DNA of 21,614 nucleotides from a virus: IMG/VR virus record IMGVR_UViG_3300008050_004543, positions 1-21,614 of that record; one strand, 5' to 3'. Below the pieces are notes generated by a model that worked only from the letters and a program-made list of their open reading frames with translations, did not search any database and was not told the origin of the DNA. Both the position numbers and the translations under genes were made by a program. Below, in pieces: positions 6,007 through 21,614 of the stretch (position 1 is its first letter; every line of letters starts with the position of its first letter).

Positions 6007-6017
6007 ATATTTATAAG
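6007..6017 (+). promoter_or_regulatory. Candidate promoter-like motif ATATTTATAAG
   Basis: The 9-mer ATATTTATA lies in the short gap before the 1407-residue gene. It recurs in the gaps at 10272 and 14888, before two other gene groups. This shared placement is the only evidence. TATTTATA is the reverse complement of the T4 late box, so the orientation is uncertain. Confidence 0.3.
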
Positions 6018-6036
6018 AGACAAACTACAATTGTTC

Positions 6037-9000
6037 ATGAATACACTTACACAGGATATAATAAAACCGTTTCTGCTCGAACAGACACAGATCAAAAAGA
6101 TCGTGGGGATCTATGCAGGTAGATTTCAACCATTTGGTCCACATCACAAGAAAACCTATGAGTGGATGAAATCAAAGTTTGATGATGCATATATCACGAC
6201 GTCTGGGATTCGAAAACTTCCACGACATCCTTTATCGTTTCGGGATAAAGCCACCCACATGTCTAAAATGGGAATCCCCAAGAGTAAAATCATCAAAGAG
6301 AAGATTCCATATGTGGCAAATAAAACACTCAAGAAGTTTGATTCCAAGACTACAGCCGTTGTGTACATCTTTGGAGAAAAGGACGCAGGACGTCTCATGT
6401 CTGGAAAGTACTTTCAAGATTATAAATCCAATAAAGATAATCTTACCGGATATGACGAACACGGTTACATCTTGACTGCACCACATGTATCTGTGAAAGT
6501 AGGTGGTCAAGAACTCAGTGGGACAGCAATGAGAAACTTACTTGGTTCTGATGCGGATGATAAAACCAAGAAAAAATTATTTAAAAAATTATTTGGTTAT
6601 TACAGCGATGACATGTATAAGATGTTTGTAGATGCATTCGTCAGTGAATCACTTACTGAACTTGGATGGCCTTTAGGGTCCGGACCAACGATTGGTCACG
6701 GTTATCCAAATAAAAAAGAATTAGATAAGTACATGAGTAAGGTTAAAAAGCAAAGAAAAAACACAGACTCAAATAAAAAGTATCAGTTTGATCCCGTCAA
6801 TGAACTTTATTTCAATCGACCAAATACAGCATTCGTATATAGATTTAAGGGTGATTGGATGATGAAAGTCAAAACCAATAAGGCAGTTTATAACATTGAA
6901 TTGGATGGTAGAAACGAAAAACAGGCAAGGGCTTTTGCTAAAAAATATTTAAAGAGAAAGTTTCCAAAAGTTAAGTTGATGGAAGAAGTTACTAAAATCA
7001 AAAAATCAATTGGCGAAGCCGTGGATATTGATGAAGTAGCTGGAGTGATTCTATACACCATGGTGGATGGTCAACCAAGATATCTATTGCTCCGAGATGA
7101 TACTCATTGGTCCTTCCCAAAGGGTCATCTCCAACAGGGAGAATCTCTTCTGGATGGAGCAATGCGTGAAACCTATGAAGAAACCGGGATAGTACCCGGA
7201 GCCGTAGATCCCAAGTTTTTCTATGAGATGTTAGTAAACTTTGGCACTGATGAACAAAGGGTCATTACGCTATTTCTCTCAATGGTTCACACTACAAAGG
7301 TCACTCTCAGCGATGAGCACCAAGAATACAAATGGGCCACGTCAGAAGAAGTGGAAGCTCTAATGGAGCAACCAGATGTGATAAATCTACTCAACAGACT
7401 AGACCGACATTTCATGAAAGCTGAAGATATAAACGTACCAGTAAATGTAGGTGATACTGTATTGGTGGGCAAGTTTAAGAATAAAAAAATAAAGGTCAAG
7501 AGTATAGGTAAAGATAAACATGGGATGCCAACCATTAATGGTAGAAAAGCAACTACATTCAGGATACACAAAAAAGTTAATATTTTTGATGATATAGACG
7601 AAGATTTGATTGAGCGTTTTATCAGTTCATTCGATATGAAAGAATTTCTTGAAGAGTCTTCGACGATCGGATCGATGGGTGGTGGAGTCGTAGATGATGG
7701 ACCTCGATACTGGTGGGGTAATCAGAAGAGTTACAGAACCACCTCAGAAGCAGAAGTTGCCAAACTAGGATGGCGGATTGTAAACTATTTAGTACCTGAG
7801 CAGGAGTTTGAAATCCATGACACGAAATATCCAGATGGTCCAACTGGAGCTGTATCGTACTATCCATCCGGTAAGGTGGGTACCAAAGCTGGTACTGGAG
7901 TGATGAAGGACGTCAGAGGAACTGAGGCCTGGAAGAAATGGGTACAGAATATTAGTCGATCAGTAACACAGTTGGGTTGGACATTTGTAGATTGGATCGA
8001 CGCAGATCTTTCTATCAAACAGACAAAAAATGAACCAGTGGATGAGTTCGATCCTCGGAACGAAGTACCACCGGAAACAGAACCCAAGGGAGAAAAGGAT
8101 CAGCATGGTGAGATGGAAGAACCACCAGATGATCCGGATGCCCCGAATGAACCACACAAGAAAGATCTTTCCGAGCGGGCTCTTTCGGTTGGATGGTGGA
8201 AAAACATTCTGGAACGGGATCCAACTCAAGAGGAAGCAATCTCAGAAGACATCAAACCAGACGTGATCAAGAGTTTTGCGATTCAGGATTCTTTGAATAC
8301 TAAGATCTGGGACGGTGAAAAACTTAAACCACAGATCAGGAAAAAGCTACTAATGATCGGTAAGAACTTTTTTGATGATTTGGAATTAGAACCACAGGTA
8401 AAGCTCCAAGACATTACACTCACAGGAAGTATTTCAAATTACAACTGGTCCAAATTTTCAGATGTAGATCTGCATCTACGGATCGATTTCAGTCAGGTGG
8501 ATGAGGATGAAAATTTTGTAAAGAATTATGTACTGGCGAAGAAAACCATCTGGAACAATAAACATGATATCAACATGTATGGTTTTCCTGTAGAGGTGTA
8601 TGTGGAAAACATCGGTGACACTCACATCGCTTCTGGGCTATACTCTATTCTGAAGGACAAATGGCTGGTAGTTCCCAAGAAGAAAGAATTACAGATTGAT
8701 CTCGAAGACATAGCCACCAAAGCAGAAGGTTATTTAGGATCAGTTTCAACGTTGGAAAAATTAATGAAAGAGGAAAAGTACTCAGAAGTAATCCGGACGG
8801 TGGAAAAGATTCAGGAGAGATTAAAGAGAATGAGAAGTTCCGGATTAGAGCGAGGTGGAGAGTTTTCAGTTGAGAATTTAGCGTTTAAAGCTCTGAGACG
8901 ATCCCCCTTCATTGGTACGATCGTTGATATGAAAACAGCAGCATATGATGCCATGATGACCATGAATGGTACACAGACGGAAGGAACCTTTTCAACGAAT

Positions 9001-10260
9001 TGGTGGAAACAACTTATCACGGAAGGTGGTGCATACGGACATATGGCTCATCCGTTTGATGATTGGGATCTAACATTTAAAGATTTTAAAAATATTATAG
9101 AGATGGGGCTGAGTGGAAACCTCAATCGAGAAGATAATGTGACTGAAAAGCTAGATGGTCAGAATTTAATGATAAGTTGGAAAGGTGGTAACCTCATTAT
9201 AGCTCGAAATAAAGGTCACATCAAGAATGCCGGAAAGACTGCTCTATCCGTGAAAGGAATAGCGAGTATGTTTAGTGGAAGAGGTGAAATAAGTAATGCG
9301 TTCTCCTTTGCTGCAAAGGATCTACAGAAAGCTATAGGAGCTCTATCTAATAAACAGAGAGATAAGATATTCATGAACGGAAGGGCTTGGATGAATCTGG
9401 AAGTACTTTGGCCGGCATCATCAAACGTGATTGATTATGACGTAGCCCAGATTGTCTTCCACGGAGCGCTCGAGTACAATGATGCAGGAACTGTAGTGGG
9501 TCAGGTCAAAGGGAGTGCAAGAACACTCGAAGGAATGATCCGCCAAGTGAACCAGCATATTCAGAAACATTACAAGATAGCTAAACCACAATTTCTGACA
9601 GTTCCGAAGAATCAAGATTTCACAAAGCGGAAAACATATTATTTTAACAAGCTGAAAAAACTTCAAGATACATATGCACTCGCAGATACAGATACTCTAT
9701 CACTGTGGCATCAGATGTTTTGGCAGGAATGGATTATGAATGGAGCTAATCAAACCGATTTCACGAATATCACAAATGATGTATTGGTGAAACTCATGAA
9801 AAGATGGGCATTTGGAGATAAATCTTATAAGATCTCGGACATGAAGAAAGAATTGAGAGATGATCATCCGGAGTTTTTAGCTTGGGCCTTGGCTACGGAT
9901 AAAGTGGATGTTCAAAAGATACAAAAGCAAAATATGAAACCCTTTGAAGTTTTATTCTTTGAGCTTGGAGCTGAAATCCTTCACAGCGTTAGTAATTTTC
10001 TTGCTGTACACCCATCCAAGTCAGCACAGAAGATGAAAACAGCCACAAAGAAAGCAGCAGCTGCGCTGAAAAGGGGAGGAGATCCCAAGAATTTGAAATT
10101 ATTGAAGACTCAGTTAGAAAAGCTACAATCTATCGGTGGATTCGATGCAGTTGTCCCATCCGAAGGATTGGTTTTCAAATATAAGGGGAACACATACAAG
10201 TTTACCGGAGCCTTTGCTCCAGTGAATCAAATCACCGGTGCATTAAAATTTGGCCGATAA
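6037..10260 (+). CDS. Giant multi-enzyme protein: HIGH nucleotidyltransferase, Nudix, Pol-beta NTase and ligase-like domains
   Basis: ATG 6037 gives 1407 residues; a TTG at 5995 is less likely. Domain 1 (~22-200) is a nucleotidyltransferase of the NMNAT/cytidylyltransferase type, with AGRFQPFGPHH (27-37) and SGTAMR (161-166). Domain 2 (~333-458) is a Nudix hydrolase whose box is intact: G363, E369, R377, E378, E381, E382, G384. A small basic SH3-like stretch (~468-512) and a Pro/Glu-rich linker (~665-710) follow. Domain 3 (~740-880) is a Pol-beta-type nucleotidyltransferase, with TGS at 796-798, SDVD ending at D811, and a third acid near E853. Domain 4 (~1000-1407) resembles ATP-dependent RNA/DNA ligases: KLDG (K1038), ARNKG, NLEVLWP (E1122), SEGLVFKY (E1376) and YKFT (K1388). 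About 240 helical residues separate motifs III and IV. Several joints read aliphatic-x-E. Domain identity is strong from motifs; the overall role is inferred to be nucleic-acid or nucleotide end processing. Confidence 0.82.
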   Translation: MNTLTQDIIKPFLLEQTQIKKIVGIYAGRFQPFGPHHKKTYEWMKSKFDDAYITTSGIRKLPRHPLSFRDKATHMSKMGIPKSKIIKEKIPYVANKTLKKFDSKTTAVVYIFGEKDAGRLMSGKYFQDYKSNKDNLTGYDEHGYILTAPHVSVKVGGQELSGTAMRNLLGSDADDKTKKKLFKKLFGYYSDDMYKMFVDAFVSESLTELGWPLGSGPTIGHGYPNKKELDKYMSKVKKQRKNTDSNKKYQFDPVNELYFNRPNTAFVYRFKGDWMMKVKTNKAVYNIELDGRNEKQARAFAKKYLKRKFPKVKLMEEVTKIKKSIGEAVDIDEVAGVILYTMVDGQPRYLLLRDDTHWSFPKGHLQQGESLLDGAMRETYEETGIVPGAVDPKFFYEMLVNFGTDEQRVITLFLSMVHTTKVTLSDEHQEYKWATSEEVEALMEQPDVINLLNRLDRHFMKAEDINVPVNVGDTVLVGKFKNKKIKVKSIGKDKHGMPTINGRKATTFRIHKKVNIFDDIDEDLIERFISSFDMKEFLEESSTIGSMGGGVVDDGPRYWWGNQKSYRTTSEAEVAKLGWRIVNYLVPEQEFEIHDTKYPDGPTGAVSYYPSGKVGTKAGTGVMKDVRGTEAWKKWVQNISRSVTQLGWTFVDWIDADLSIKQTKNEPVDEFDPRNEVPPETEPKGEKDQHGEMEEPPDDPDAPNEPHKKDLSERALSVGWWKNILERDPTQEEAISEDIKPDVIKSFAIQDSLNTKIWDGEKLKPQIRKKLLMIGKNFFDDLELEPQVKLQDITLTGSISNYNWSKFSDVDLHLRIDFSQVDEDENFVKNYVLAKKTIWNNKHDINMYGFPVEVYVENIGDTHIASGLYSILKDKWLVVPKKKELQIDLEDIATKAEGYLGSVSTLEKLMKEEKYSEVIRTVEKIQERLKRMRSSGLERGGEFSVENLAFKALRRSPFIGTIVDMKTAAYDAMMTMNGTQTEGTFSTNWWKQLITEGGAYGHMAHPFDDWDLTFKDFKNIIEMGLSGNLNREDNVTEKLDGQNLMISWKGGNLIIARNKGHIKNAGKTALSVKGIASMFSGRGEISNAFSFAAKDLQKAIGALSNKQRDKIFMNGRAWMNLEVLWPASSNVIDYDVAQIVFHGALEYNDAGTVVGQVKGSARTLEGMIRQVNQHIQKHYKIAKPQFLTVPKNQDFTKRKTYYFNKLKKLQDTYALADTDTLSLWHQMFWQEWIMNGANQTDFTNITNDVLVKLMKRWAFGDKSYKISDMKKELRDDHPEFLAWALATDKVDVQKIQKQNMKPFEVLFFELGAEILHSVSNFLAVHPSKSAQKMKTATKKAAAALKRGGDPKNLKLLKTQLEKLQSIGGFDAVVPSEGLVFKYKGNTYKFTGAFAPVNQITGALKFGR

Positions 10261-10294: not shown

Positions 10295-10789
10295 ATGAGT
10301 AAGAACATAGCAAAGATTCAATCTATGATTGATGGAACACACCAACGAAAAATTCAAGTTGGGTATAAAGCCAAAACGACGATTCAGCGGAAAGAAGGTG
10401 AACGCTGGACTGATGGAAATGGTACTGACTGGGAAGTCGTTGATGGAAAGAGAAAACAAATCACTAAGATTCCACCCCGGGGGTTTGACAAGTGCTCTGA
10501 ATGCGAAAAGTTAATTCTCAAGCAGCTTGATCAGGATACTTATAACCGGATGCATAAATGTTATCACTGCCAGGTGAATTTTGAACTTGACCTAAAGGCT
10601 GAGGGGAAATGGCATGAATGGGTGTGGGAACAAGAGCAACAGCGATGGACATCCGTTGAAGAAGAACTCCAACTGATCTTAAAGGATATGAAAGACAGTA
10701 GTGATCAAGCATTTGATCCGAGAGTAGCCAACGCTATGGCAAATGAAAATGTTGATATGACGATTAAGAAAAATACCGGAGATATATAA
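10295..10789 (+). CDS. Small zinc-ribbon-like phage protein, unknown function
   Basis: Two ATGs lie in tandem (10292 and 10295). The second has better spacing (7 bases) from AAGG, giving 164 residues. Two CxxC pairs, C67/C70 (KCSEC) and C89/C92 (CYHC), are 18 residues apart and should bind one zinc ion. The N-terminal part is basic with a Trp-containing motif (GERWTDGNGTDWE). The C-terminal part is acidic and probably helical. The gene ends in a TAATG overlap with the next ORF. A DNA-associated or assembly role just upstream of the terminase is possible. A small terminase subunit (gp16-like) was considered, but no motif supports it. Confidence 0.75.
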   Translation: MSKNIAKIQSMIDGTHQRKIQVGYKAKTTIQRKEGERWTDGNGTDWEVVDGKRKQITKIPPRGFDKCSECEKLILKQLDQDTYNRMHKCYHCQVNFELDLKAEGKWHEWVWEQEQQRWTSVEEELQLILKDMKDSSDQAFDPRVANAMANENVDMTIKKNTGDI

Positions 10790-11109
10790 TGAAGTTATTT
10801 AAAATATTGGGGGGAATCTTAGCAGCAATTGCAGGAATTGCTGGTATGTTATTCGCTGGTGGTAAGAAATCACAAGAAGTGAAAGAACTCAAGACAGTTA
10901 TCAAAGAAAACAAAAAAGAAGAGAAGAAGGTAGAAGAGACGATTGAGGTACTGGAAAAAGATAAAGTGAAAAACAAGAAAGAAATAACAGCCGCAAAAAG
11001 AAAATTAACGCGTAGTAAGAATGAAGTCAAGAAGATGGAAAAAGCCTACGAAGAAGATGACATCGAATCCGCAGAAGATTTTTTAAAAAAGTTTGCTAAG
11101 AATAAATGA
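10789..11109 (+). CDS. Small membrane-anchored coiled-coil protein
   Basis: This 106-residue protein starts at the TAATG overlap with the zinc-ribbon gene. Residues ~4-25 (ILGGILAAIAGIAGMLFAGG) form one hydrophobic, Gly/Ala-rich membrane segment. The rest is extremely rich in Lys and Glu, with heptad-like spacing expected of a long coiled coil (~30-95), ending FLKKFAKNK. A short N-terminus, one membrane helix and a coiled-coil domain match the general plan of inner-membrane spanins (Rz-type), but that plan is not specific. The next gene encodes an exported coiled-coil protein, so the two could act together. The membrane topology is well supported; the lysis role is a guess. Confidence 0.72.
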   Translation: MKLFKILGGILAAIAGIAGMLFAGGKKSQEVKELKTVIKENKKEEKKVEETIEVLEKDKVKNKKEITAAKRKLTRSKNEVKKMEKAYEEDDIESAEDFLKKFAKNK

Positions 11110-11111
11110 GG
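11108..11111 (+). promoter_or_regulatory. Ribosome-binding site that fixes the start at 11118
   Basis: GAGG lies 6 bases before ATG 11118. The alternative ATG at 11106 lies upstream of this site and would add four residues ahead of an otherwise ordinary signal peptide. Both facts favour 11118. Confidence 0.6.
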
Positions 11112-11117
11112 TCTACA

Positions 11118-11489
11118 ATGAAGATACTAAAATATTTTATAATATTCTGTTTTGCTTTATCAATCATAGATGCACAGGATACATTTACACAAGCAGAAGC
11201 GTTAGAGATGATAAAACAACGAGATGCACAATGGGAAGGTAAGATAGAAAAGGCTGATTCATTAATTGCATCACAGAAAGAATTGATTGCTGATTGTGAA
11301 GGTTTAGTAGGAAACTTAGAGGAAACTGCAAATTTAGATTCTCTGCTGCTGAATGCTAAAAGTGCACAAATTAAATTGTTAAAAGCTCGTGACGCAGCTA
11401 ATGAGAAGTTAGTGCAGTTGGTTGAACCAAAATGGTATGAGAACCAATATCTTTGGTTAATAATAGGATTCACCTTAGGTAAGATCTAA
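11118..11489 (+). CDS. Exported coiled-coil protein with C-terminal membrane segment (spanin-like?)
   Basis: ATG 11118 gives 123 residues. The N-terminus MKILKYFIIFCFALSIIDAQ is a signal peptide with a likely cut after Ala or near DAQ. Residues ~22-95 are helical, charged and coiled-coil-like, with one Cys. The C-terminus ends WYENQYLWLIIGFTLGKI, a short hydrophobic segment. Proteins with a signal, a coiled coil and a final membrane segment occur next to lysis genes in some phages, so this may form a pair with the preceding membrane protein. No holin or endolysin is visible nearby, which weakens that idea. The gene ends in a TAATG overlap with the terminase. Confidence 0.7.
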   Translation: MKILKYFIIFCFALSIIDAQDTFTQAEALEMIKQRDAQWEGKIEKADSLIASQKELIADCEGLVGNLEETANLDSLLLNAKSAQIKLLKARDAANEKLVQLVEPKWYENQYLWLIIGFTLGKI

Positions 11490-13075
11490 TGTCTGACATT
11501 AAAAAAGCCATACAGAGAGAGTATGTCAAATGCGTGGAAGAGCCCACTCACTTTCTCCAAAAGTATTCGATAATCCAACACCCCCAAAGAGGAAAGATCA
11601 AATTTGATCTATATGACTTTCAGTCTAAAACGCTCGAAGAGGTGAGAAAGAATCAGTATAGTATAATTCTCAAGTCTAGACAGCTTGGAATCAGTACATT
11701 GACGGCTGGATATAGTTTATGGCTCATGTTGTTTTTCCAAGATAAAAATATTTTAGTCATTGCCAAGGATAAAGGTGCTGCAAAGAATCTGGTCACGAAG
11801 GTTCGTGTCATGTTTCATAATTTACCAACGTGGTTGAAGACTAAGGTGGATGAAGATAATAAATTATCATTTCGACTAGGCAACGGATCTCAGATCAAAG
11901 CAGTTGCTGCTACTCCGGAAGCCGGTCGTTCTGAAGCATTGTCGATGTTGGTATTAGATGAGGCAGCATTTATTCCTGCAGTTGAAACTATCTGGACTGC
12001 AGCACAACAGACCTTAGCAACCGGTGGTCAGTGTATTGTCCTATCCACTCCAAATGGTGTTGGAAATTGGTTTCATAGAATGTGGGTTGATGCCACTGAT
12101 GGTATTAATGACTTTGCATTTATTGAACTACCGTGGCAACGACATCCAGATCGCGATCAAACCTGGAGAGATGATCAGGAGAAGGCATTGGGACCAACCA
12201 AGGCGGCACAGGAATGTGACGCTAACTTTCTCACATCCGGTAATTCCATTATAGATCCGCTAATACTTCAGTGGTACAAAGAGACTCTAGTTAAAGAGCC
12301 AATTGAACGAGCTGGAGTGGATAAGAATCTTTGGATCTGGGACTATCCTGACTATTCCAAGGAATATATTGTTGTAGCTGACGTGGCTCGTGGAGACGGC
12401 TCCGATTACTCTGCAACTCAAATTTTTGAGATAGAATCTCTCGACCAAGTAGCTGAATATAAAGGTCAGTTATCGACTACCGATTACGGTAATTTTCTCA
12501 TTGAGCTCGCTACTAAGTACAATGACGCTCTATTGATTGTTGAGAATAACAACGTAGGGTGGGCCACACTTCAGACAATTATCGATCGTGGGTATAAAAA
12601 CCTATTCTATCAATCTAAAGACCTTCAGTACGTAGATACTGAGCATCACATGGAAAGCAACCGATATAGATCTCAGGATAGAAATATGATTCCTGGATTC
12701 ACGACATCAAAGAAAACTAGGCCGCTCGTGGTTGCTAAAATGGAAGAATATACAAGAGAAAAAATGATCAATATAAGGTCTTCACGACTGGTTGAAGAGC
12801 TTTTTGTATTTATTTATCACAACAGCAGGGCAGAAGCCATGGCGGGATACAATGATGATCTCGTAATGTCTTTCGGTATAGCACTGTGGATCCGTGATAC
12901 AGCCCTGAGGCTAAAAAAAGAAAATGATGACTATCAACGACAAATGTTAGGGTCATTCTTAAATAATAATAATGGTTATGATGAAGGATTCGGTAAGGGT
13001 CAGATCAAACCAAAAGACAACCCCTGGGAGATTGAGATCGAAGGTAAAAAAGAAAATCTTAATTGGCTCCTATAG
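11489..13075 (+). CDS. 17: Large terminase subunit (gp17-like)
   Basis: This 528-residue protein is the packaging motor and headful nuclease. The N-terminal ATPase has an adenine-binding region (~40-60, FDLYDFQ), Walker A at 62-70 (KSRQLGIST), Walker B with D157-E158 (LVLDEAAF), and the coupling motif LSTPNG (185-190). The C-terminal RNase H-like nuclease has D298 (VVADVARGDGSDYS), E352 (IVENNN) and D456/D457 (YNDDLV). The length is somewhat below T4 gp17 (610), with a short N-terminus. It overlaps the upstream gene by one base and is followed within 12 bases by the portal gene. The family assignment is secure. Confidence 0.96.
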   Translation: MSDIKKAIQREYVKCVEEPTHFLQKYSIIQHPQRGKIKFDLYDFQSKTLEEVRKNQYSIILKSRQLGISTLTAGYSLWLMLFFQDKNILVIAKDKGAAKNLVTKVRVMFHNLPTWLKTKVDEDNKLSFRLGNGSQIKAVAATPEAGRSEALSMLVLDEAAFIPAVETIWTAAQQTLATGGQCIVLSTPNGVGNWFHRMWVDATDGINDFAFIELPWQRHPDRDQTWRDDQEKALGPTKAAQECDANFLTSGNSIIDPLILQWYKETLVKEPIERAGVDKNLWIWDYPDYSKEYIVVADVARGDGSDYSATQIFEIESLDQVAEYKGQLSTTDYGNFLIELATKYNDALLIVENNNVGWATLQTIIDRGYKNLFYQSKDLQYVDTEHHMESNRYRSQDRNMIPGFTTSKKTRPLVVAKMEEYTREKMINIRSSRLVEELFVFIYHNSRAEAMAGYNDDLVMSFGIALWIRDTALRLKKENDDYQRQMLGSFLNNNNGYDEGFGKGQIKPKDNPWEIEIEGKKENLNWLL

Positions 13076-13087: not shown

Positions 13088-14881
13088 ATGGCTAGAAACA
13101 ACATATTAGACAGATTAGGTCAATTATTCCGGAATAATATAATTATCCGCAAGACGGATGACAACCGACTAGTCGTAAAAGATCTAGATTTCACCCAGTC
13201 CGGACTCGTGAGTAATTTCGTCGACCGATACACTAAGGTTGTATCCCAAAGTCGAATGGGTAAATATTCATATAATCAAAATGCAAGAAATGCCTATGAG
13301 ATTGCTCGAAATGAGTTGTTTCGTGATTATGAACTCATGGATAGCGATCCAATCATTTCTAGCGCGCTTGATATCTATTCTGATGAATCGCTCATCGATA
13401 ACATTCAGGGAGAAATCCTTTCCATCAAGACCGATAACCCAAAGCTCCACAGCATTCTGCATAACCTCTTCTATGATGTATTAAACATTGAATTCAATCT
13501 CTGGTCATGGATGCGTAACCTGACTAAATATGGAGATTTTTATCTATTGATGGACATTATTGATAAATACGGTGTGGTAAATATAAAACCTCTGTCACCA
13601 TATGAGGTGACCAGGTTGGAAGACCACGACCCATCAAATCCAAAGCTCGTTCAGTATGAACTTCGCGACGATCCAACCAAAAGTACACAACAGGGTGGGG
13701 CCACTAGATTATATGAAAATTATGAAATAGCTCACTTCCGCCTACTCAGTGACAGTAATTTCCTCCCATATGGAAAAAGTACCCTTGAGGGTGCTCGTAG
13801 AGTGTGGAAACAATTGACTCTGATGGAAGATGCCATGATGATACACCGGATCATGAGAGCTCCTGAAAAGAGAGTCTTTAAGTTGGATATTGGTAATATA
13901 CCACCAAACGAAGTCGATAACTTCATGCAAAAGATAATTCAAAAGATGAAGAAGATTCCAGTGATCGATCAGCAAACAGGCGAGTACAATCTCAGATATA
14001 ATGTTGAATCTGTTACTGAAGATTATTTTCTACCCGTACGTGGAGGAGACTCAGGAACTGAAATTGAAACATTACCCGGACTGACCAATGACAATGCCAT
14101 CGATGATATAGAATATCTGAGAAACAAACTCATGGCAGCATTGAAGATCCCTAAGGCGTTTCTTGGATACGAAGAAGGAATCGGATCTAAAGCTACTCTG
14201 GCAGCAGAAGACGTAAGGTTTGCTCGAACGATTGAGCGGTTACAGAAAATACTCTGTAGTGAACTCACCAAGATAGCTATCGTGCATCTGTATGCACAAG
14301 GTTTTGACGATACCGACTTATTAGATTTTGATCTCGAACTGACAAATCCATCGATGATTCACGAACAGGAGAAGCTTGAACTGCTGACTCAGCAGGTGGA
14401 TATCGCGAACACAGCCATGGATAATAAATTATTTTCCCGGGAATGGGTATATGATAACATCTTTGACATGAACGATCAGGATAAGAAAGTTATGTTTGAT
14501 GGGCTCATTGAAGATCGAAAACAAGTATTCAGGATGGAACAAATTGAGACTGAAGGCAATGATCCAGCAGAAACAGGTGCCGCAGCTGAAGACATGGAAG
14601 AGGATGTTGGTGAATGGGGTGGATCCGAGAAAGGACCAAATCTTCCAGACCTGGATCGTGGACGTTCAACGTCACAAGATACCAAAGATGCTACCAAGTA
14701 TGAAAGAGAGCGATGGGGCAAACGCGAATTTAAGGGTGGATCTCCACTGTATCCTGGAAAGGGAGCTACAGCTGTAAAGAAAGAGGGACTACTAGCGTCA
14801 CTGAAAGAAAAGTTTGGACCAAATGATGTAGACTCAGGTATTCTGAATGAGAACTCTCTTTTAAGTGACGAAAAGGAGTAA
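13088..14881 (+). CDS. 20: Portal vertex protein (gp20-like)
   Basis: This 597-residue protein has GAGG at 13078-13081, 6 bases before the ATG. It would form the dodecameric ring at the packaging vertex, through which DNA enters and leaves and on which prohead assembly starts. Recognisable segments are YSYNQNARNAYEIARNEL (~61-78), DSDPIISSALDIYSDES (~85-101), and the later LRNKLMAALKIPKAFLGYEE, all typical of T4-type portals. The C-terminal ~110 residues are a Glu/Asp- and Gly-rich tail (AEDMEEDVGEWGG) that lengthens it beyond T4 gp20 (524). The terminase-portal adjacency is tighter than in T4, where tail sheath and tube genes lie between them. Confidence 0.93.
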   Translation: MARNNILDRLGQLFRNNIIIRKTDDNRLVVKDLDFTQSGLVSNFVDRYTKVVSQSRMGKYSYNQNARNAYEIARNELFRDYELMDSDPIISSALDIYSDESLIDNIQGEILSIKTDNPKLHSILHNLFYDVLNIEFNLWSWMRNLTKYGDFYLLMDIIDKYGVVNIKPLSPYEVTRLEDHDPSNPKLVQYELRDDPTKSTQQGGATRLYENYEIAHFRLLSDSNFLPYGKSTLEGARRVWKQLTLMEDAMMIHRIMRAPEKRVFKLDIGNIPPNEVDNFMQKIIQKMKKIPVIDQQTGEYNLRYNVESVTEDYFLPVRGGDSGTEIETLPGLTNDNAIDDIEYLRNKLMAALKIPKAFLGYEEGIGSKATLAAEDVRFARTIERLQKILCSELTKIAIVHLYAQGFDDTDLLDFDLELTNPSMIHEQEKLELLTQQVDIANTAMDNKLFSREWVYDNIFDMNDQDKKVMFDGLIEDRKQVFRMEQIETEGNDPAETGAAAEDMEEDVGEWGGSEKGPNLPDLDRGRSTSQDTKDATKYERERWGKREFKGGSPLYPGKGATAVKKEGLLASLKEKFGPNDVDSGILNENSLLSDEKE

Positions 14882-16095: not shown

Positions 16096-16401
16096 ATGGG
16101 TCGATACAGAGCAGATTCAACTGATAATACAAAATCAATGCCAAAGCAGATACCGGTAAAGTCATTCGGTACGGCTATTGCACCGGCAGCAGAAGCAGAG
16201 GTCGAGAGAGCCAGCTATGTAATAGTAAATGTAGAACATGCTACTAAATATGAATTTTTATATGAATCTGGTGGTACGTATGTAGATTATGGAATAGTGG
16301 CAGCTGATGGTCCTTTAAGAATAAACATTAATCCTATAGCTTGGAAAGGTGGAGCAGGTACGACTGGTCACGTATCTTTCGTATATCGAGGAGGAGCATA
16401 A
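16096..16401 (+). CDS. Small beta-rich phage protein, unknown function
   Basis: This 101-residue protein has a strong SD (AGGAG, 16084-16088), 7 bases before the ATG. The N-terminal ~25 residues are polar and probably disordered (MGRYRADSTDNTKSMPK). The rest alternates hydrophobic residues and turns (ASYVIVNVEH, YEFLYESGGTYVDYG, GHVSFVYRGGA), as in a small beta-sandwich. No signal peptide, Cys or catalytic motif is present. It overlaps the prohead protease start by one base (TAATG). A head decoration or minor structural role would fit the position. It is not assigned to a family. Confidence 0.72.
   Translation: MGRYRADSTDNTKSMPKQIPVKSFGTAIAPAAEAEVERASYVIVNVEHATKYEFLYESGGTYVDYGIVAADGPLRININPIAWKGGAGTTGHVSFVYRGGA
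16389..16394 (+). promoter_or_regulatory. Perfect SD that fixes the prohead protease start
   Basis: AGGAGG lies 6 bases before ATG 16401. The in-frame ATG at 16341 lies 60 bases upstream, inside the preceding gene, and has no such site. Confidence 0.8.
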
Positions 16402-17003
16402 TGCATAAACAATTACTAGTGGATTATATGCCATTTGAAATATCTGCACACAAGATCAATGAATCCATTCAAAAGAATAATGGCAAATTGATCGTAAAAG
16501 GAATTCTGCAACGTGCAGGAGCTCAAAATCAAAATGGACGCATCTATCCAAGAGAAATCCTACAGAGAGAAGCCTCGCAGTACACTGACACTCAGATAAA
16601 AGAGCGAAGAGCTCTAGGTGAGTTAGATCATCCAGACAGTTCAGTAGTCAATCTACAAAATGCATCTCATAATATTACTGAAATGCACTGGGACGGAGAT
16701 GATCTGTTGGGTACCGTAGAGGTGCTAGGAACACCCAGTGGGAACATTTTAAAAGAATTATTCAAGTCGGGAATCAAGTTAGGAATCTCATCTAGAGGAT
16801 TGGGTTCCGTTAAGGAAATCCGTGAAGATGATGCTGTAGAGGTGCAAGATGATTTTGAACTCATAGCATTTGACTTTGTCTCTAACCCATCCACCCACGG
16901 AGCTTTTATGTATCCGATGAATGAGGGCACAGATAGATCTAAACAGATTGAAAAGTGGTCAGGTGTCGATGGTATCATCAATGATATCATGAGGGGCGAT
17001 TGA
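16401..17003 (+). CDS. 21: Prohead core protease (gp21-like)
   Basis: This is a 200-residue serine protease of the T4 gp21 type (herpes-assemblin-like fold). The catalytic His is H77 in LGELDHPDSS. The nucleophile is S130 or S131 in LGISSRGLG. VKGILQRAGAQNQNGRIYP (32-50) and FELIAFDFVSNPSTHGAF (152-169) are typical family segments. In T4 this enzyme matures the prohead, cutting scaffold, capsid and internal proteins after (L/I)xE. The family length is usual. Here it lies just upstream of many proteins with aliphatic-x-E sites, which are its probable substrates. It ends in a TGATG overlap with the next gene. Confidence 0.93.
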   Translation: MHKQLLVDYMPFEISAHKINESIQKNNGKLIVKGILQRAGAQNQNGRIYPREILQREASQYTDTQIKERRALGELDHPDSSVVNLQNASHNITEMHWDGDDLLGTVEVLGTPSGNILKELFKSGIKLGISSRGLGSVKEIREDDAVEVQDDFELIAFDFVSNPSTHGAFMYPMNEGTDRSKQIEKWSGVDGIINDIMRGD

Positions 17004-17368
17004 TGGCGTCTATGTATAAAAGACAGATGCTCGAGTTTCACGACGGTCTATCAGAGATTCGTCCAAAGAAAAAGCCTTTAGTAAAAAAGCCACCAGCTAC
17101 AGAACAGCCGCCTAGTGTGCTTGATAATCTGATCAATGAAATCAATTCCATGGAATCAACTCAGCTGAGGAACGAAGTCAGTAAGGATAAACTGATTGGC
17201 GGGCAGGGTACCAGAAAAGGCAAGCTCATGCTATATCAAAGGGCTGATGGCAACTTTTATATGACGTTGAAAGGTAAAGAAGCTGAAATGGATGCTGGAT
17301 TAGTTAAAAATAGAAGCGATGCAATTAAAGCCGCTACCATGTTTGCAAAGATGATCAATGCCAGCTAA
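17003..17368 (+). CDS. Small phage protein, unknown function
   Basis: ATG 17003 overlaps the prohead protease stop (TGATG); 121 residues. The N-terminal third is basic and Pro-rich (RPKKKPLVKKPPATEQPP) and probably disordered. The C-terminal part (~55-121) looks like a small alpha/beta domain: GKLMLYQRADGNFYMTLKGKE, then a helix ending AATMFAKMINAS. There is no membrane segment. It overlaps the next gene by 11 bases, so the two are translated together. A minor head or core role is inferred only from neighbours. Confidence 0.72.
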   Translation: MASMYKRQMLEFHDGLSEIRPKKKPLVKKPPATEQPPSVLDNLINEINSMESTQLRNEVSKDKLIGGQGTRKGKLMLYQRADGNFYMTLKGKEAEMDAGLVKNRSDAIKAATMFAKMINAS

Positions 17369-18176
17369 ATCAAAAGCTCAGCAACGTTTCATGGGTATGG
17401 TTCATTCGTACAACAAGGGCGACATGAAAGATGCACCAGCTTCCGTGAAGAAAGCCGCAAAGGGGATGACCAAGAAGTCAGCAAAAGATTTTGCATCTAC
17501 GAAGCATAAGGGGAAACCTGAGCACGTTGCTGAAGCTCTAAGAAGACTGATCAGGCAGGAAATCCGAGCATATAATGAAGCTATAAGTAAAAATGACATA
17601 CAAGATCTTGCTATTGATTACTTAGGTGCTATGGGGCAAGTAGCAAGAGTAAGTAAAAGTAAATACCAGCAGTGGGCAAAAGGTTTAAAGAGTAGCTACA
17701 ATACAAAACAAGCGAAAGATGCTTTGATCTCACTAACTTCTCAAACTGGTGTTGCAAGTAGGATAAATAAAAGTAAATCTGATTCGTTTATGAAAAAACA
17801 TCTAAATGAATCCGTAAATGAAGCAAAAACGATCAATGTAGAGCCTAATTGGGAAGGCTTATATCGATTTATGATGCATATGAGAAAAGGCGATAATGCG
17901 GCATTTGTTCGAGTTACTAGAAAGATGGGCGCTGATTGGAAAAAATTAGAGCAGATGGCACAGAAGAAGCAGTGGTATGTTAGAGGTGATTTTTCTGAAT
18001 CCGTAAATGAAAAAGTAGCAAATCCATTTTCACAACATCTCAGGGATGCACAGGAAGAAGTAGAATATATGATATCACACCACTCGGGTGCAGAAGAAGA
18101 AGGCGTTTATGATAAACCCAAACAAGCAATAAAATTTTTACAAGTAGCCCAGAAAGCACTGGGCAAGATAACATAG
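17358..18176 (+). CDS. Modular basic protein: DUF3008-like N-terminus plus joined small modules
   Basis: This is a 272-residue protein. Residues 1-56 (MPAKSKAQQRFMGMV ... FASTKHKGKPEHV) match the DUF3008 family, a short basic protein found in bacteria and phages. A leader-like helix follows (EALRRLIRQEIRAYNEA, ~59-75). Three small modules come next, ending with LNESVNEA (~150) and FSESVNEK (~213). The two joints share 15 identical bases (GAATCCGTAAATGAA), and the same words appear again in the last gene of the window. The second module holds NWEGLYRFMMHMRKG and WYVRGDF. The joints contain aliphatic-x-E|(A/S/K), which a gp21-type protease could cut. The function is unknown; I read it as a head-packaged modular protein. 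Confidence 0.72.
   Translation: MPAKSKAQQRFMGMVHSYNKGDMKDAPASVKKAAKGMTKKSAKDFASTKHKGKPEHVAEALRRLIRQEIRAYNEAISKNDIQDLAIDYLGAMGQVARVSKSKYQQWAKGLKSSYNTKQAKDALISLTSQTGVASRINKSKSDSFMKKHLNESVNEAKTINVEPNWEGLYRFMMHMRKGDNAAFVRVTRKMGADWKKLEQMAQKKQWYVRGDFSESVNEKVANPFSQHLRDAQEEVEYMISHHSGAEEEGVYDKPKQAIKFLQVAQKALGKIT
17808..17824 (+). repeat. Joint repeat GAATCCGTAAATGAAGC, copy 1
   Basis: It encodes ESVNEA between two modules. The same 17 bases occur at 21500-21516, 3.7 kb away, and the first 15 occur at 17997-18011. A diverged copy (GAATCAATCAATGAAGC) is at 21308-21324. Confidence 0.85.
17997..18011 (+). repeat. Joint repeat, copy 2 (15 bases)
   Basis: GAATCCGTAAATGAA encodes ESVNE at the second joint of the same protein. 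It is identical to copy 1 over 15 bases, while the flanking modules are unrelated. Confidence 0.85.
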
Positions 18177-18185: not shown

Positions 18186-18674
18186 ATGGCTAAATTACGA
18201 AGTCTATTAGCTGAAGTATTTGAAGAACATGAAGCACCGATCGATCGCAGAGCGGTAGCAGAAGGAGTATCCCAGTATGGGATCGTTGGCAAGAAACTAT
18301 ACAGCGAACACAACATTATGGAGATCGCTGAACAGCTCGTTAAGATTGCTGAATCGGCACAGACCCACGTACTTTCTGAGACGGATGATTGGTTCGACAA
18401 AGTATCAGTGAACCGGAACATGAAGGCAATGACCGGAATGGTCAAAGAGTTCAAGAGCACAGCTACTGAGTATAAATCGCTATCCGAAAGGTTAGTTGCT
18501 CTGTATGAGGATATGGGTGGAATACTGAATCGGTACTACGACATCCAGGAAGAGCTTGATCCGGTAGGTGATGAAGATGATGATGTTGACAATGATGGTG
18601 ACTCTGATGAGTCGGACGACTATCTGGCAAACAGACGTGATGCTGTCACGAAGGCTGTAGGGAGTGGCAATTAA
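18186..18674 (+). CDS. Conserved marine T4-like phage protein with acidic tail
   Basis: ATG 18186 follows AGGAG (18175-18179) by 6 bases; a GTG at 18183 is unlikely. The protein has 162 residues. The N-terminus MAKLRSLLAEVFEEHEAP is an amphipathic, leader-like helix. The middle is helical (SQYGIVGKKLYSEHNIMEIAEQLVKI, TDDWFDKVSVNRNMKAMTGM). The C-terminus is a very acidic Asp-rich tail (GDEDDDVDNDGDSDESDD). I recall similar proteins in marine T4-like phages without a known role. Acidic helical proteins just after gp21 could be prohead scaffold or core (the gp22 position), but homology to gp22 is not visible. Confidence 0.75.
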   Translation: MAKLRSLLAEVFEEHEAPIDRRAVAEGVSQYGIVGKKLYSEHNIMEIAEQLVKIAESAQTHVLSETDDWFDKVSVNRNMKAMTGMVKEFKSTATEYKSLSERLVALYEDMGGILNRYYDIQEELDPVGDEDDDVDNDGDSDESDDYLANRRDAVTKAVGSGN

Positions 18675-18954: not shown

Positions 18955-19311
18955 ATGGCAAAGTTAGCAGATTTACTAAATCAGAAAGACTTGGGAAGGG
19001 TCCGGACCATGAAGGATAACCCACCGTTTAAGACGGAACGTCAGCAGATCCAACAGGAACTCAGTGAAGCGGATGAAGATTCCGTTGCTGATGCAGATAT
19101 GAAAGCAGCAAAGAAATTAGAGTTCAAGTTAGGGAAGGTGTATTCGACGGTCAATGATAGTGTGAAACTTATCATCAAGAATATATCAGATTTTAATGCT
19201 CCAGGATTAAAGGCTGCATTCTTGGATGGATTGAAAGTCGGAATTAAGGGTGGACAATTTGACGTTAGAGCAGCACAAAAGAGATTTGAAAAGTATTTTA
19301 AGGGACGTTAA
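18955..19311 (+). CDS. Small helical phage protein with candidate protease site
   Basis: This 118-residue protein has AGGAG at 18943-18947, 7 bases before the ATG. The N-terminal ~40 residues (MAKLADLLNQKDLGRV ... QQELSEADED) begin with an amphipathic helix and contain L-S-E|A, a good match to the T4 gp21 cut pattern. The remainder, ~43-118, is a compact helical domain (LGKVYSTVNDSVKLIIKN, FDVRAAQKRFEKYFKGR). No membrane or enzyme motif is present. It ends in a TAATG overlap with the first of the leader genes. If cut at LSE|A, it would release a domain of about 80 residues. Confidence 0.72.
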   Translation: MAKLADLLNQKDLGRVRTMKDNPPFKTERQQIQQELSEADEDSVADADMKAAKKLEFKLGKVYSTVNDSVKLIIKNISDFNAPGLKAAFLDGLKVGIKGGQFDVRAAQKRFEKYFKGR

Positions 19312-19523
19312 TGAAGATCACCAGAGCAGAATTAAAAGAAATGATTCGCGAAGAATTAAATGAAGTTAGTGATCCATACGATGGTGTATACAATAACCTA
19401 CATGATGCAATGGTGGCTGTTCATAATGTCTTTAAAAAACAGAAAGTTGATCGCAAAACAATGGGAGCATTTAGGAAATGGTGGGACCAATTAGATAGGT
19501 TCTATCCACGATCTCCGGAATAA
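19311..19523 (+). CDS. Leader-family small protein 1
   Basis: This 70-residue protein starts at TAATG. The leader MKITRAELKEMIREELNEV is followed by a short helical body (NNLHDAMVAVHNVFKKQKVD, FRKWWDQLDRFYP). The leader is shared with five more genes downstream. LNE|V after the leader is a candidate processing site. I infer an internal head protein. The body has no recognised relatives. Confidence 0.72.
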   Translation: MKITRAELKEMIREELNEVSDPYDGVYNNLHDAMVAVHNVFKKQKVDRKTMGAFRKWWDQLDRFYPRSPE

Positions 19524-19524
19524 T

Positions 19525-19572
19525 ATGAAATTTACTAAATCAGAAAACAGTGGGAGCATCTAGGAAAATAAT
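19525..19572 (+). pseudogene. Orphan leader stub with remnant of the preceding gene
   Basis: ATG 19525 begins MKFTKSENSGSI and stops at 19563. The first seven codons match the leader of the neighbours. The next bases (GAAAACAGTGGGAGCATCTAGGAAA) closely match 19454-19477 of the previous gene (GCAAAACAATGGGAGCATTTAGGAAA). It looks like a decayed or partly deleted copy of a leader gene. Confidence 0.6.
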
Positions 19573-19866
19573 ATGAAAATTACTAAAACAGAACTTAGAG
19601 AAATGATTCGTGAAGAACTGTTAAGAGAAGCCACAGACATAGATAAAATGGCGGATGAAATCATAAATAACGCAAAGCATTATAGCAAAAATATAAAACA
19701 TTATCATTCATTAGACGGGGATGTTTTTGGCGGTATGACTAATGGGCAGAAGAAATATGAAGCAATGCAAAAATTATTAGTTCAAGTAAATAAAGAATTG
19801 ATCAAGTTTGGTAAAACGTGGATAACTAAATATCAGAAATCAGTCGACAGGATAATGAAATCATGA
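19573..19866 (+). CDS. Leader-family small protein 2
   Basis: This 97-residue protein has the leader MKITKTELREMIREELLREA, with L-R-E|A as a candidate cut. The body (~21-97) is helical and polar (DKMADEIINNAKHYSKNI, GGMTNGQKKYEAMQKLL, WITKYQKSVDRIMKS) and lacks Cys or membrane segments. The body is unrelated to that of leader protein 1, so the leader is the only shared part. The stop overlaps the next start (ATGA). Confidence 0.74.
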   Translation: MKITKTELREMIREELLREATDIDKMADEIINNAKHYSKNIKHYHSLDGDVFGGMTNGQKKYEAMQKLLVQVNKELIKFGKTWITKYQKSVDRIMKS

Positions 19867-20099
19867 AACTAACTAAATCTCAACTTAAAGAAATCATTAG
19901 AGAAGAATTAAGAGAAGCCAGCTTAAACAAATATACTAAAGGCGTAGATTCTCAGGACAACGTAGGAAACGTATTTATAACAAAACACGATACCGGTGAC
20001 ATTACATTTCACATAGGAGGAAAGTCAGATTCATCTATTGTATTCAATCGTAGACAAATCAAAGATGTTATGAAAAAACTAAAGAAGATGGGAGCTTAA
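19863..20099 (+). CDS. Leader-family small protein 3
   Basis: This 78-residue protein starts inside the ATGA overlap. The leader is MKLTKSQLKEIIREELREAS, with L-R-E|A. The body (~22-78) appears beta-rich at first (GNVFITKHDTGDITFHIGG) and ends with a basic helix (NRRQIKDVMKKLKKMGA). It is a small alpha/beta domain with no recognised family and differs from its neighbours' bodies. Confidence 0.74.
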   Translation: MKLTKSQLKEIIREELREASLNKYTKGVDSQDNVGNVFITKHDTGDITFHIGGKSDSSIVFNRRQIKDVMKKLKKMGA

Positions 20100-20100
20100 C

Positions 20101-20601
20101 ATGAAACTAACCAGATCAAAACTCAAAGAAATCATTAAAGAAGAACTACAAGAGCTTCAAGAGATCAGTCACACCTTCACTGGAAACACAAAGTTCATGA
20201 AAAAGAAAATGTTGCCTCTGATGAGGAAAGCTGGAATCAAACATGTTAAGGTACGTGATTACGGTGGTGGACAAATGGAAGTAGATTTCGATGTCGATGA
20301 TGAGGTCTTTCAACACTTAAAAGACACACTGAAGAAGAGTCTTGGAAAGGAAGGTGGTTATAAGTGGAAATTAGCAAATTTGAACCTTGAGGGATTAGAA
20401 GAAGAACTCCTGAAAGAGCAGATGGATATCCGATCTGTATACTACAGTATCGGTGACGCAGTAGAAAATTTAATCTGGATCGCAAAGAGAAACACACAGT
20501 ATGAGAAGGATAGAAAATTAAAGGACTTTGGGAACAAATTTTTAAAAATGCTAGATGTGTTGAGGAAACACCTGGATAAGACATACGGAGATTGGGACTA
20601 A
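20101..20601 (+). CDS. Leader-family protein 4, two modules
   Basis: This 166-residue protein has the leader MKLTRSKLKEIIKEELQELQE. Module 1 (~22-98) is alpha/beta: KKMLPLMRKAGIKHVKVRDYGG, QMEVDFDVDDEVFQHL. Module 2 (~101-166) begins with EELLKEQ, itself a leader fragment, and continues with the same body as the next gene (MDIRSVYYSIGDAVENLIW ... TYGDWD). The protein therefore looks like a fusion of a leader, a first body and a leader-plus-body copy whose leader start has been lost. Confidence 0.75.
   Translation: MKLTRSKLKEIIKEELQELQEISHTFTGNTKFMKKKMLPLMRKAGIKHVKVRDYGGGQMEVDFDVDDEVFQHLKDTLKKSLGKEGGYKWKLANLNLEGLEEELLKEQMDIRSVYYSIGDAVENLIWIAKRNTQYEKDRKLKDFGNKFLKMLDVLRKHLDKTYGDWD
20401..20601 (+). 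repeat. Tandem duplication, copy 1
   Basis: 201 bases, from GAAGAACTCCTG to the stop codon, match copy 2 at 177 of 201 positions by my count (about 88%). The first 59 bases are identical. The offset is 239 bases, so the copies lie in different frames and in different genes. Similarity stops abruptly upstream of the leader remnant. Confidence 0.9.
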
Positions 20602-20840
20602 TGAAGATAACTAGATCAGAACTCAAAGAGATCATCCGGGAAGAACTCCTGAAAGAGCAGATGGATATCCGATCTGTATACTACAGTATCGGTGACGCGA
20701 TAGAAAATTTACTCTGGGTCGCGAAGAGAAACACGCAGTATGAAAAGGACAGAAAGCTAAAGGACTTTGGGAACAAATTTTTAAAAATGCACGATATGTT
20801 GCAAAAGCATCTGGATAAAACCTATGGAGACTGGGATTGA
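20601..20840 (+). CDS. Leader-family small protein 5
   Basis: ATG 20601 gives 79 residues; a TTG or other start at 20592 lies upstream in the previous gene and lacks the leader alignment. The leader MKITRSELKEIIREELLKEQ runs straight into the body MDIRSVYYSIGDAIENLLW, which ends TYGDWD. The body differs from module 2 of the preceding protein at six residues, mostly conservative. The stop overlaps the next start (TGATG). It is helical and charged, with aromatic residues, and its function is unknown. Confidence 0.76.
   Translation: MKITRSELKEIIREELLKEQMDIRSVYYSIGDAIENLLWVAKRNTQYEKDRKLKDFGNKFLKMHDMLQKHLDKTYGDWD
20640..20840 (+). repeat. Tandem duplication, copy 2
   Basis: This is the second copy of the 201-base unit. 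Here it follows a complete leader. Most of the 24 differences are synonymous, so both copies have been kept under protein-level selection since duplication. Confidence 0.9.
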
Positions 20841-21614
20841 TGAAGATCACAAAGACACGACTTGAACAGATCATCCGGGAAGAACTTAAACGATACAAAG
20901 AAACCGCTACCGAGGCAATCTTTGATCCCAATGAATTTAAGGTGATCTACAGAGAAGTTCAAGGCTCACTTCACGAGAATCCAGCCGCCATGGCAGCCGC
21001 TGCAATGGCTGCAACTCAACTGAGAAACCAACAGGGCAAGCAGATTAAAGCCACGACTGCATTGAATGATAAATCACACACTCAACACGATAAAGCCAAG
21101 AGTATGTTCCAACGCCTGAAGGACAAATTCAGTGGTAAGAAAGAATCTGTAGTAGATGAAGGAAAATTAAGTTCTCAAATCAAAAAGGCGGTAATGATAG
21201 CAATACAGATGAGTGGTAATATGACAGGAGCTACTGATAAGATTGAAAAGATTAAAAAGGGGTTATCCAAAGATAAAAAAGTAGCAGACGCACTTCGTCT
21301 TGCAAATGAATCAATCAATGAAGCTAAATCGCTTTCTAAGATGAATACTGATGAACTTATCAAGCATTGGGAAAAAGAATCGAAAACTGTAGAAATGATG
21401 AAAGATAAAAAACAAATTGATAAAACTGCATATAGGGTTGAGAGTGGAAAAATAGCAAGAATATTAAATCATTTGGGGGGACTCAAAAAGGATATGAAAG
21501 AATCCGTAAATGAAGCTAAATTTGATGCTACTGGCGTTGATTGGTCTGGTGAAATGATGTGGAAGTGGGTTTCCAAAGCATTAAAAACTGCTGGTATTAA
21601 AGAACTAAAATATA
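20840..21614 (+). CDS. Leader-family protein 6, modular (3' partial)
   Basis: The ATG at 20840 overlaps the previous stop. The frame is open to the window edge (258 codons), so the gene continues. The leader is MKITKTRLEQIIREELKRYKE. The first module has an Ala/Met-rich helix (NPAAMAAAAMAATQLR) and a basic helix (KSMFQRLKDKF). A joint ESVVDEG follows at ~101-107. A helical module ends LANESINEA (~154-162), and another ends MKESVNEA (~219-226). The final visible part is FDATGVDWSGEMMWKW. The joints contain V-D-E|G, I-N-E|A and V-N-E|A. It looks like a packaged polyprotein built from small modules; no enzymatic motif is visible in the part seen. Confidence 0.72.
   Translation, partial: MKITKTRLEQIIREELKRYKETATEAIFDPNEFKVIYREVQGSLHENPAAMAAAAMAATQLRNQQGKQIKATTALNDKSHTQHDKAKSMFQRLKDKFSGKKESVVDEGKLSSQIKKAVMIAIQMSGNMTGATDKIEKIKKGLSKDKKVADALRLANESINEAKSLSKMNTDELIKHWEKESKTVEMMKDKKQIDKTAYRVESGKIARILNHLGGLKKDMKESVNEAKFDATGVDWSGEMMWKWVSKALKTAGIKELKY
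21500..21516 (+). repeat. Joint repeat GAATCCGTAAATGAAGC, copy 3
   Basis: It is identical over 17 bases to 17808-17824 in another gene, and again encodes ESVNEA at a module boundary. The diverged copy at 21308-21324 marks the previous joint of this protein. Confidence 0.85.

What the first reader, a model, noticed from the sequence alone, without database searches (positions are those of the whole stretch)
19311..21614. A family of genes sharing only an N-terminal leader resembling a capsid-targeting sequence
Seen: six consecutive genes begin with variants of MKITKxELKEIIREEL, followed by unrelated bodies. Several leaders end in L-x-E|(A/V). Known: T4 internal proteins share a short N-terminal capsid-targeting sequence (MKTYQEFIAEA in IPIII), which gp21 removes. 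Inference: these genes encode the phage's internal head proteins, a variable cargo that may counter host defences on entry. The gp21-like gene lies 2.3 kb upstream.
Basis: partly seen in the sequence, partly recalled or inferred. Interest (0 to 1): 0.82.

Follow-up and report, generated by a model that had tools for sequence, protein, structure and literature searches.

The report
Interchangeable leaders on phage head cargo
An uncultured T4-type phage and its relatives tag many unrelated small proteins with a shared removable front end that very probably sends them into the new virus head, where the head protease would cut it off; this would make them a variable payload, but neither the packaging nor what the payload does has been shown.

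Summary
Six consecutive genes (19311 to the window end) begin with MK(I/L)T(K/R)xxL(K/R/E)(E/Q)(I/M)I(K/R)EEL. Their bodies differ, except that 20601 repeats the C-terminal module of 20101. The leader is not chance: 169 distinct leader proteins were found in 84 loci, with no hits in 257 Gb of bacterial and archaeal genomes and none among 8,269 start codons of control viral contigs.
Three results support a cleaved capsid-targeting leader. (1) In 151 non-redundant leaders, L/I-x-E (usually L-N-E, then A or G) follows at residues 18-23; it is in 73% of proteins against 10% of body windows. L/I-x-E is the published T4 gp21 motif. (2) The same bodies occur in relatives behind unrelated N-termini, and in 48 of 98 such pairs the partner has [LIV]-x-E exactly at the switch point (2.3% expected). 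(3) Leader contigs carry the gp21-type (S77) protease in 27 of 50 cases against 1 of 23 controls.
Beyond the finding: a second, 10-residue leader (MIKLKDLLNE, the length of T4 IPIII's); a scaffold starting MDDLLKE|A; polyproteins whose modules are joined by ESVNE|A.
Packaging, cleavage and injection are inferred. The anti-defence role is untested. It works like the T4 ip system, but the leader is not T4's sequence: a new variant of a known kind.

The parts
19311..19523 (+). Leader gene 1 (70 aa): MKITRAELKEMIREELNE|VSDPYDG...; leader 19311-19364
   Evidence: leader score 39.0; L-N-E at residue 18
19525..19563 (+). Relic of a decayed leader gene (MKFTKSENSGSI*): a leader start fused to a tail matching the body of gene 1
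   Evidence: first 21 nt match the leader of gene 19573 (19/21); a 29-nt stretch matches gene 19311 at 25/29, across the stop (score 21; shuffles median 9, max 17)
19573..19866 (+). Leader gene 2 (97 aa): MKITKTELREMIREELLRE|ATDID...; leader 19573-19629
   Evidence: score 44.8; L-R-E|A
19863..20099 (+). Leader gene 3 (78 aa): MKLTKSQLKEIIREELRE|ASLNK...; leader 19863-19916
   Evidence: score 48.8; L-R-E|A
20101..20601 (+). Leader gene 4 (166 aa), two modules: MKLTRSKLKEIIKEELQELQE|ISHTFTGNTKF... then EEELLKE|QMDIRSVYY... (second module from 20419)
   Evidence: module A has relatives in L135 and L117; module B is repeated in gene 5 with the same LLKE|Q junction
20601..20840 (+). Leader gene 5 (79 aa): MKITRSELKEIIREELLKE|QMDIRSVYY...; standalone copy of module B; leader 20601-20657
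   Evidence: relative in L108:11977-12213 with the same junction
20840..21614 (+). Leader gene 6, open at the window end; leader MKITKTRLEQIIREEL without L/I-x-E, then modules separated by V-D-E|G (residue 107), I-N-E|A (161) and V-N-E|A (225)
   Evidence: module AK(S/A)LSKMNTDELIKHWEKES recurs in L173 after ESVNE|; an upstream in-frame TTG at 20837 is also possible
16401..17003 (+). Prohead protease, gp21 type (S77); conserved I-N-E-S near residue 20 in relatives suggests autocleavage
   Evidence: PF03420 1.3e-31; phrog_207 1.4e-55; GELDHP and GISSRG blocks and the late Asp aligned with T4 gp21
18955..19311 (+). Gene with another leader type, ...LGRVRTMKDNPPFKTE|RQQIQQELSE|ADEDSVADAD...; its body occurs in L003 behind MIKLKDMLNE|
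18186..18674 (+). Conserved prohead-region gene starting MAKLRSLLAE; counterparts start MSNKIKLKDILSE|A, MTTKLKELLYE
17358..18176 (+). DUF3008-headed polyprotein with ESVNE|A (E155, nt 17822) and ESVNE|K (E218, nt 18011) between modules
   Evidence: modules recur in L247 and L163 directly after SVNE or TINE
17003..17368 (+). Small gene with a longer charged leader, ...LDNLINE|INSMESTQLRNE|VSKDK...; resembles the KKPxxK...TINE|GPAYDY genes of relatives
   Evidence: leader resemblance judged by eye
13088..14881 (+). Portal protein gp20, T4 type (context)
   Evidence: PF07230 2.2e-76; nearest isolates Mel-JY01 49% and immuto 46%
11489..13075 (+). Terminase large subunit (context)
   Evidence: PF03237 6.8e-13; phrog_2 3e-46

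Best explanation
The 16-residue leader plus the following L/I-x-E is a removable capsid-targeting sequence. It docks each protein into the prohead core, where the S77 protease cuts after L/I-x-E and frees the body inside the head. The bodies are therefore internal head proteins: small, unrelated, fast-exchanging cargo, probably ejected into the host with the DNA. The leader is one of several interchangeable ones in these phages (long MKITKxxLKEIIREEL...LNE, short MIKLKDLLNE, longer types, and a polyprotein form with ESVNE|A joints). Nearly all end at the same cleavage motif, so any body can be swapped onto any leader or into a polyprotein. Shown: leaders, motif, swap points, gene context, protease homology. 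Inferred: prohead docking, cleavage, presence in virions, injection, effect in the host.
For: Leader found in 84 loci and absent from 257 Gb of genomes. L/I-x-E just after the leader in 73% of 151 proteins (shuffles 37%, body windows 10%); L/I-N-E 34% against 1%; A or G commonest at the next position; the site moves between residues 18 and 23 yet is kept (these residues were not in the search pattern). The published gp21 motif is L/I-X-E and T4 CTSs are 10-19 residues (PMC9026906); T4 ip genes read MKTYQEFIAE|A and MKTFKEFTSTTTPVSTITE|A. Body exchange: 98 pairs, partner has [LIV]xE exactly at the switch in 48 and within two residues in 75 (expected 2.3% and 10.7%); body-only alignments 41 and 77 of 89, with an exact case in 13 of 20 families. 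Short leader: Glu at residue 10 in 90 of 106, though not required by the pattern. Scaffold starts MDDLLKE|A; major capsid proteins keep [LIV]xE(A/S/T/N/G) near residue 60. S77 protease in 27 of 50 leader contigs against 1 of 23 controls, Fisher 2e-5. In a 194-kb contig four of five leader genes lie within about 15 kb of the protease. AlphaFold model of L068:11837: leader a separate helix (5-20), then a low-confidence linker and a separate helical body.
Against: No virion proteomics was found for these uncultured phages. About a quarter of leaders, including window gene 6, lack L/I-x-E in the expected place. The nearest cultured phages (Mel-JY01, immuto) show no long leader in the 40 kb around their protease, and a short-query search of isolates found none (low-complexity filtering limits it). 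Contig G025 has terminase, portal, capsid gene and a leader but no protease at the usual place; the leader is fused there to an upstream gene, so deletion or misassembly is possible. Leader contigs are mostly related T4-type phages, so co-occurrence with S77 is partly shared descent. One large body family does not follow the exact junction rule (2 of 27 pairs).
Confidence: 0.78

Rival explanations
1. The leaders do target the prohead core and are cut, but many bodies are core or scaffold helpers that are consumed or stay in the head (as T4 gp67 and gp68 are), not injected effectors.
For: Genes sit between protease and scaffold/capsid genes, not in a distant hotspot as T4 ip genes do. Modelled bodies are small and helical. 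A conserved neighbour (18186) carries a similar short start.
Against: High turnover: of the complete protease-to-capsid intervals listed, L006 holds at least five standalone long-leader genes and L008, L011, L015, L030, L050 and L051 none; polyprotein modules are shuffled.
Confidence: 0.3
2. The leader is a DNA-level recombination handle that lets genes be exchanged; its protein sequence is incidental.
For: Tandem leader genes, a duplicated module and a decayed gene show active rearrangement.
Against: Third codon positions vary most, with up to six Leu or Arg codons at fixed residues; bodies also move onto leaders with no similarity; L/I-x-E is kept while its position shifts.
Confidence: 0.06
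3. The leader is an amphipathic helix that docks to something other than the prohead core (membrane, host protein, RNA polymerase) and is not cleaved.
For: Predicted as a lone helix; about a quarter lack a clear L/I-x-E.
Against: Does not explain why bodies switch N-termini at [LIV]xE, why ESVNE|A joins polyprotein modules, or why the protease is beside them.
Confidence: 0.1
4. Bodies are mainly anti-defence proteins, like T4 Ip1-3, which inhibit GmrSD restriction enzymes. (This can be true together with the best explanation.)
For: Ip1-3 share only the leader and each inhibits a different GmrSD enzyme (PMC12373910); here too the bodies are variable and small.
Against: No body matched a family that points to anti-defence; one body model has no fold relatives; hosts unknown.
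Confidence: 0.35

Closest known systems
T4 internal proteins IPI, IPII, IPIII (ip genes) and their capsid-targeting sequence
   Same: Short shared N-terminal leader on otherwise unrelated small proteins, ending in L/I-x-E|A; gp21-type protease; variable set between phages (PMC9026906, PMC12373910)
   Different: Leader sequence is unrelated apart from the MK start; genes lie inside the head-assembly block instead of about 30-40 kb away; several leader types and polyprotein forms coexist
T4 prohead core and scaffold proteins gp22, gp67, gp68
   Same: Same gene neighbourhood; scaffold analogue starts MDDLLKE|A as gp22 starts MLKEQLIAE|A
   Different: Leader genes are numerous, variable and absent from some close relatives
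Phage polyvalent proteins (PMC5512222)
   Same: Multidomain proteins in phages, many predicted to be packaged and injected, compared by their authors to viral polyproteins
   Different: Their release is ascribed to embedded peptidase domains; here joints match the motif of the separate prohead protease
Ejection proteins of giant phages phiKZ and SPN3US
   Same: N-terminal propeptides removed by a gp21-related protease; paralogues with identical N-termini (PMC5694885)
   Different: Different cleavage motif (A-x-E or S-x-E), S80-type protease, no shared leader sequence with this one

Membership tests
T4-type internal head proteins with a capsid-targeting sequence | Shared short N-terminal leader on unrelated bodies | tested here: met
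   133-row alignment is conserved only over residues 1-16
T4-type internal head proteins with a capsid-targeting sequence | Leader ends in L/I-x-E, the gp21 motif | tested here: met
   (73% of 151; five of six in the window); motif from PMC9026906
T4-type internal head proteins with a capsid-targeting sequence | Leader homologous in sequence to MKTYQEFIAE | tested here: not met
   only MK and the L/I-x-E end agree, by inspection
T4-type internal head proteins with a capsid-targeting sequence | Phage encodes a gp21-type protease | tested here: met
   one exception, G025
T4-type internal head proteins with a capsid-targeting sequence | Proteins present and processed in mature virions | not testable with these tools
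   no culture or proteomics
T4-type internal head proteins with a capsid-targeting sequence | Injected into the host; inhibits a host defence | not testable with these tools
   bodies essentially unmatched in Pfam and PHROGs
Peptidase S77 (T4 gp21) | Pfam PF03420 above cut-off and catalytic blocks present | tested here: met
   (110 bits, cut-off 27); alignment shows His and Ser blocks and the late Asp
Polyvalent proteins | Several distinct domains in one packaged polypeptide | tested here: inconclusive
   modules joined by ESVNE|A and found alone elsewhere; packaging not testable

The most novel reading that the evidence does not exclude
Marine T4-type phages carry a plug-in cargo system: dozens of small modules move freely between several unrelated capsid-targeting leaders and multi-module polyproteins, the only fixed rule being an L/I/V-x-E joint that the prohead protease cuts. 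One virion would thus deliver a large, population-variable payload, including enzymes from polyproteins such as the 1421-residue one at 5995-10260.
Probability: 0.5. Interest if true: 0.76.

Novelty: new variant of a known kind. Interest (0 to 1): 0.64.

Why it matters
Leader detection identified many T-even ip genes, and T4 Ip1-3 turned out to be injected inhibitors of restriction enzymes. If the leaders found here do the same job, they mark a large and largely unannotated set of probable virion cargo proteins in uncultured marine phages, findable by N-terminus alone. The leader-swap and polyprotein patterns also make the cleavage site predictable to the residue, so N-terminal proteomics of marine virus concentrates could test it directly.

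Tried and rejected
tblastn of the leader alone against isolates gave no match; short, charged queries may be filtered, so this is weak. Pfam and PHROG scans of 133 leader proteins gave only scattered hits of one or two members. Structure of one body family: reasonable model (pLDDT 80) but no fold relatives in BFVD or PDB. The model of window gene 5 was low-confidence (pLDDT 67) and carries little weight. A genome-collection search with the body family failed for lack of conserved stretches. The same collection searched with the protease gave six loci, all in metagenome bins, so the host stays unknown. The DNA-handle explanation was tested by codon variation and set aside. Literature searches found no description of these leaders, within an open-access library only.
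Full report
What is there. The window is a 21.6-kb virus record, a fragment, with a T4-type head block in the usual order: terminase 11489-13075, portal 13088-14881, S77/gp21-type protease ending at 17003. From 19311 to the end come six consecutive genes with the shared leader. Two details change: gene 20601 repeats the C-terminal module of 20101 (about 88% identical), and a decayed leader gene lies at 19525-19563.

Not chance. All loci together gave 169 distinct leader proteins in 84 loci. In 133 aligned proteins conservation stops after residue 16. The conservation is at protein level: third codon positions vary most.

Cleavage motif. Positions 17 onward were free in the search pattern, yet L/I-x-E follows in 73% of 151 non-redundant proteins, against 37% after shuffling the same residues and 10% in body windows. 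L/I-N-E alone is 34% against 1%. The first residue of the motif is Leu in 103 of 113, the middle one Asn in 54, and the residue after Glu is Ala (31) or Gly (24) most often. The site falls at 18, 19, 21 or 22 as a rule, so leader length changes while the motif stays. The published gp21 motif is L/I-X-E, and T4 leaders are 10-19 residues (PMC9026906).

Leader swapping. Proteins with the long leader were compared with all ORFs lacking it. In 98 non-redundant homologous pairs from 13 families the partner, with an unrelated N-terminus, has [LIV]-x-E exactly at the aligned position in 48 and within two residues in 75; random positions give 2.3% and 10.7%. With leader residues removed from the query the result is 41 and 77 of 89, over 20 families. 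Pairs share relatives and are not independent; one large family (27 pairs) follows the rule poorly. Examples: L135 EELVE|ASDKIQVKGVG and L060 PPFKIDE|ASDKIQVQGVG; L006 ELLNE|RYIDPDDAG and L154 MIKLKDIVKE|AYIDPADAG; L192 EELNE|AAPKMRGRPG and L163 VVKE|AAPKMREKPG. In the window, EEELLKE|QMDIRSVYY joins two modules inside gene 4 and the same module stands alone behind LLKE| in gene 5.

Other leaders and polyproteins. Relatives carry a second family of starts, MIKLKDLLNE. A pattern that did not ask for Glu found 106 with Ile or Leu at position 2, of which 90 have Glu at residue 10; control contigs had none. Ten residues is the length of the T4 IPIII leader, whose residues 8 and 10 govern processing (PMC9026906). 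The scaffold upstream of the capsid gene begins MDDLLKE|A in many relatives, as T4 gp22 begins MLKEQLIAE|A. Long proteins, many with a DUF3008-type start, hold up to six E-S-V-N-E-A type joints; in the largest case they are spaced 65-131 residues apart, the size of the standalone bodies. [LIV]NE(A/G) is about seven times denser in ORFs of these loci than in control contigs (4.5 against 0.66 per 10,000 residues). Several polyprotein modules also occur as single leader genes. Window gene 17358 is such a protein, with modules shared with L247 and L163.

Link to the protease. Of 50 leader contigs found without reference to the protease, 27 carry S77, against 1 of 23 random contigs (Fisher 2e-5). 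Most of the rest lack the portal too, as fragments would. One exception, G025, has terminase, portal, scaffold and capsid genes but no protease at its place; the leader is fused there to the gene that normally precedes the protease, which could be a real deletion or a misassembly. Shared descent explains part of the association.

Mechanism. The economical reading is a capsid-targeting leader: docking to the core, cleavage after L/I-x-E by S77, release of the body in the head, and probable injection. A structure model of one leader protein shows the leader as a separate helix, then a low-confidence linker and a separate helical body. Docking, cleavage, presence in virions and injection are inferred. 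Whether bodies act against host defences is unknown; Pfam and PHROGs offered no useful function and the modelled body has no fold relative. T4 Ip1-3, which share only a leader and inhibit GmrSD enzymes (PMC12373910), make the idea reasonable but are not evidence for these proteins.

Novelty. Shared-leader internal proteins are known from T4-like phages. New here, as far as the open-access library shows, are this leader and its short companion, their spread in uncultured T4-type phages (the marine habitat is my inference from the related metagenome bins), the exchange of bodies at the cleavage motif, and the polyprotein form. That is a new variant of a known kind.

Noticed in passing
window 5995-10260: A 1421-residue polyprotein with a NUDIX domain (Pfam 1.5e-14), by eye nucleotidyltransferase-like and ligase-like parts, and [LIV]xE before several parts (IDE|VAGVILYTM before NUDIX, LITE|GGAYGH before the last domain). 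Relatives of 900-1800 residues shuffle these parts, and many keep LxE|GGAYGH. Possibly packaged enzymes.
   Followed up: partly
L275 (G025:6000-25316), 4000-9200: Head block with leader genes but no S77 protease; the leader is fused to the gene that normally precedes the protease.
   Followed up: partly
L089, L107, L110, L137, L157, L159, L160, L175, L186, L197 and the window end: Leader clusters often sit near contig ends, as if assembly breaks there; fits high within-population variation or repeats. Not tested against chance.
   Followed up: no
L253 and L254 (G039:1-40000): A run of about ten genes with a related leader MKITKRQLRRIIKEEKxKLL(N/R/S/D)E in a 71-kb contig in which neither S77 nor T4 portal was found; perhaps another lineage with the same architecture.
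   Followed up: no
protease N-terminus in the relatives and window 16401 onward: I-N-E-S, L-N-E-S or I-D-E-S near residue 20 of the protease recurs in the relatives inspected, a candidate autocleavage site (compare LIE-9 suggested for T4 gp21).
   Followed up: no
window 3483-5998: Genes judged by eye as glycosyltransferase-like, radical-SAM-like and sulfotransferase-like lie upstream of the polyprotein.
   Followed up: no
window 10789-11489: Two short overlapping genes with weak Rz-spanin profile matches, a possible lysis pair just before the terminase.
   Followed up: no
L002:6160, L050:16544, L200:21155: A small S21-like ribosomal protein gene sits shortly before the scaffold gene in several relatives (annotated RpsU in Mel-JY01).
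   Followed up: no
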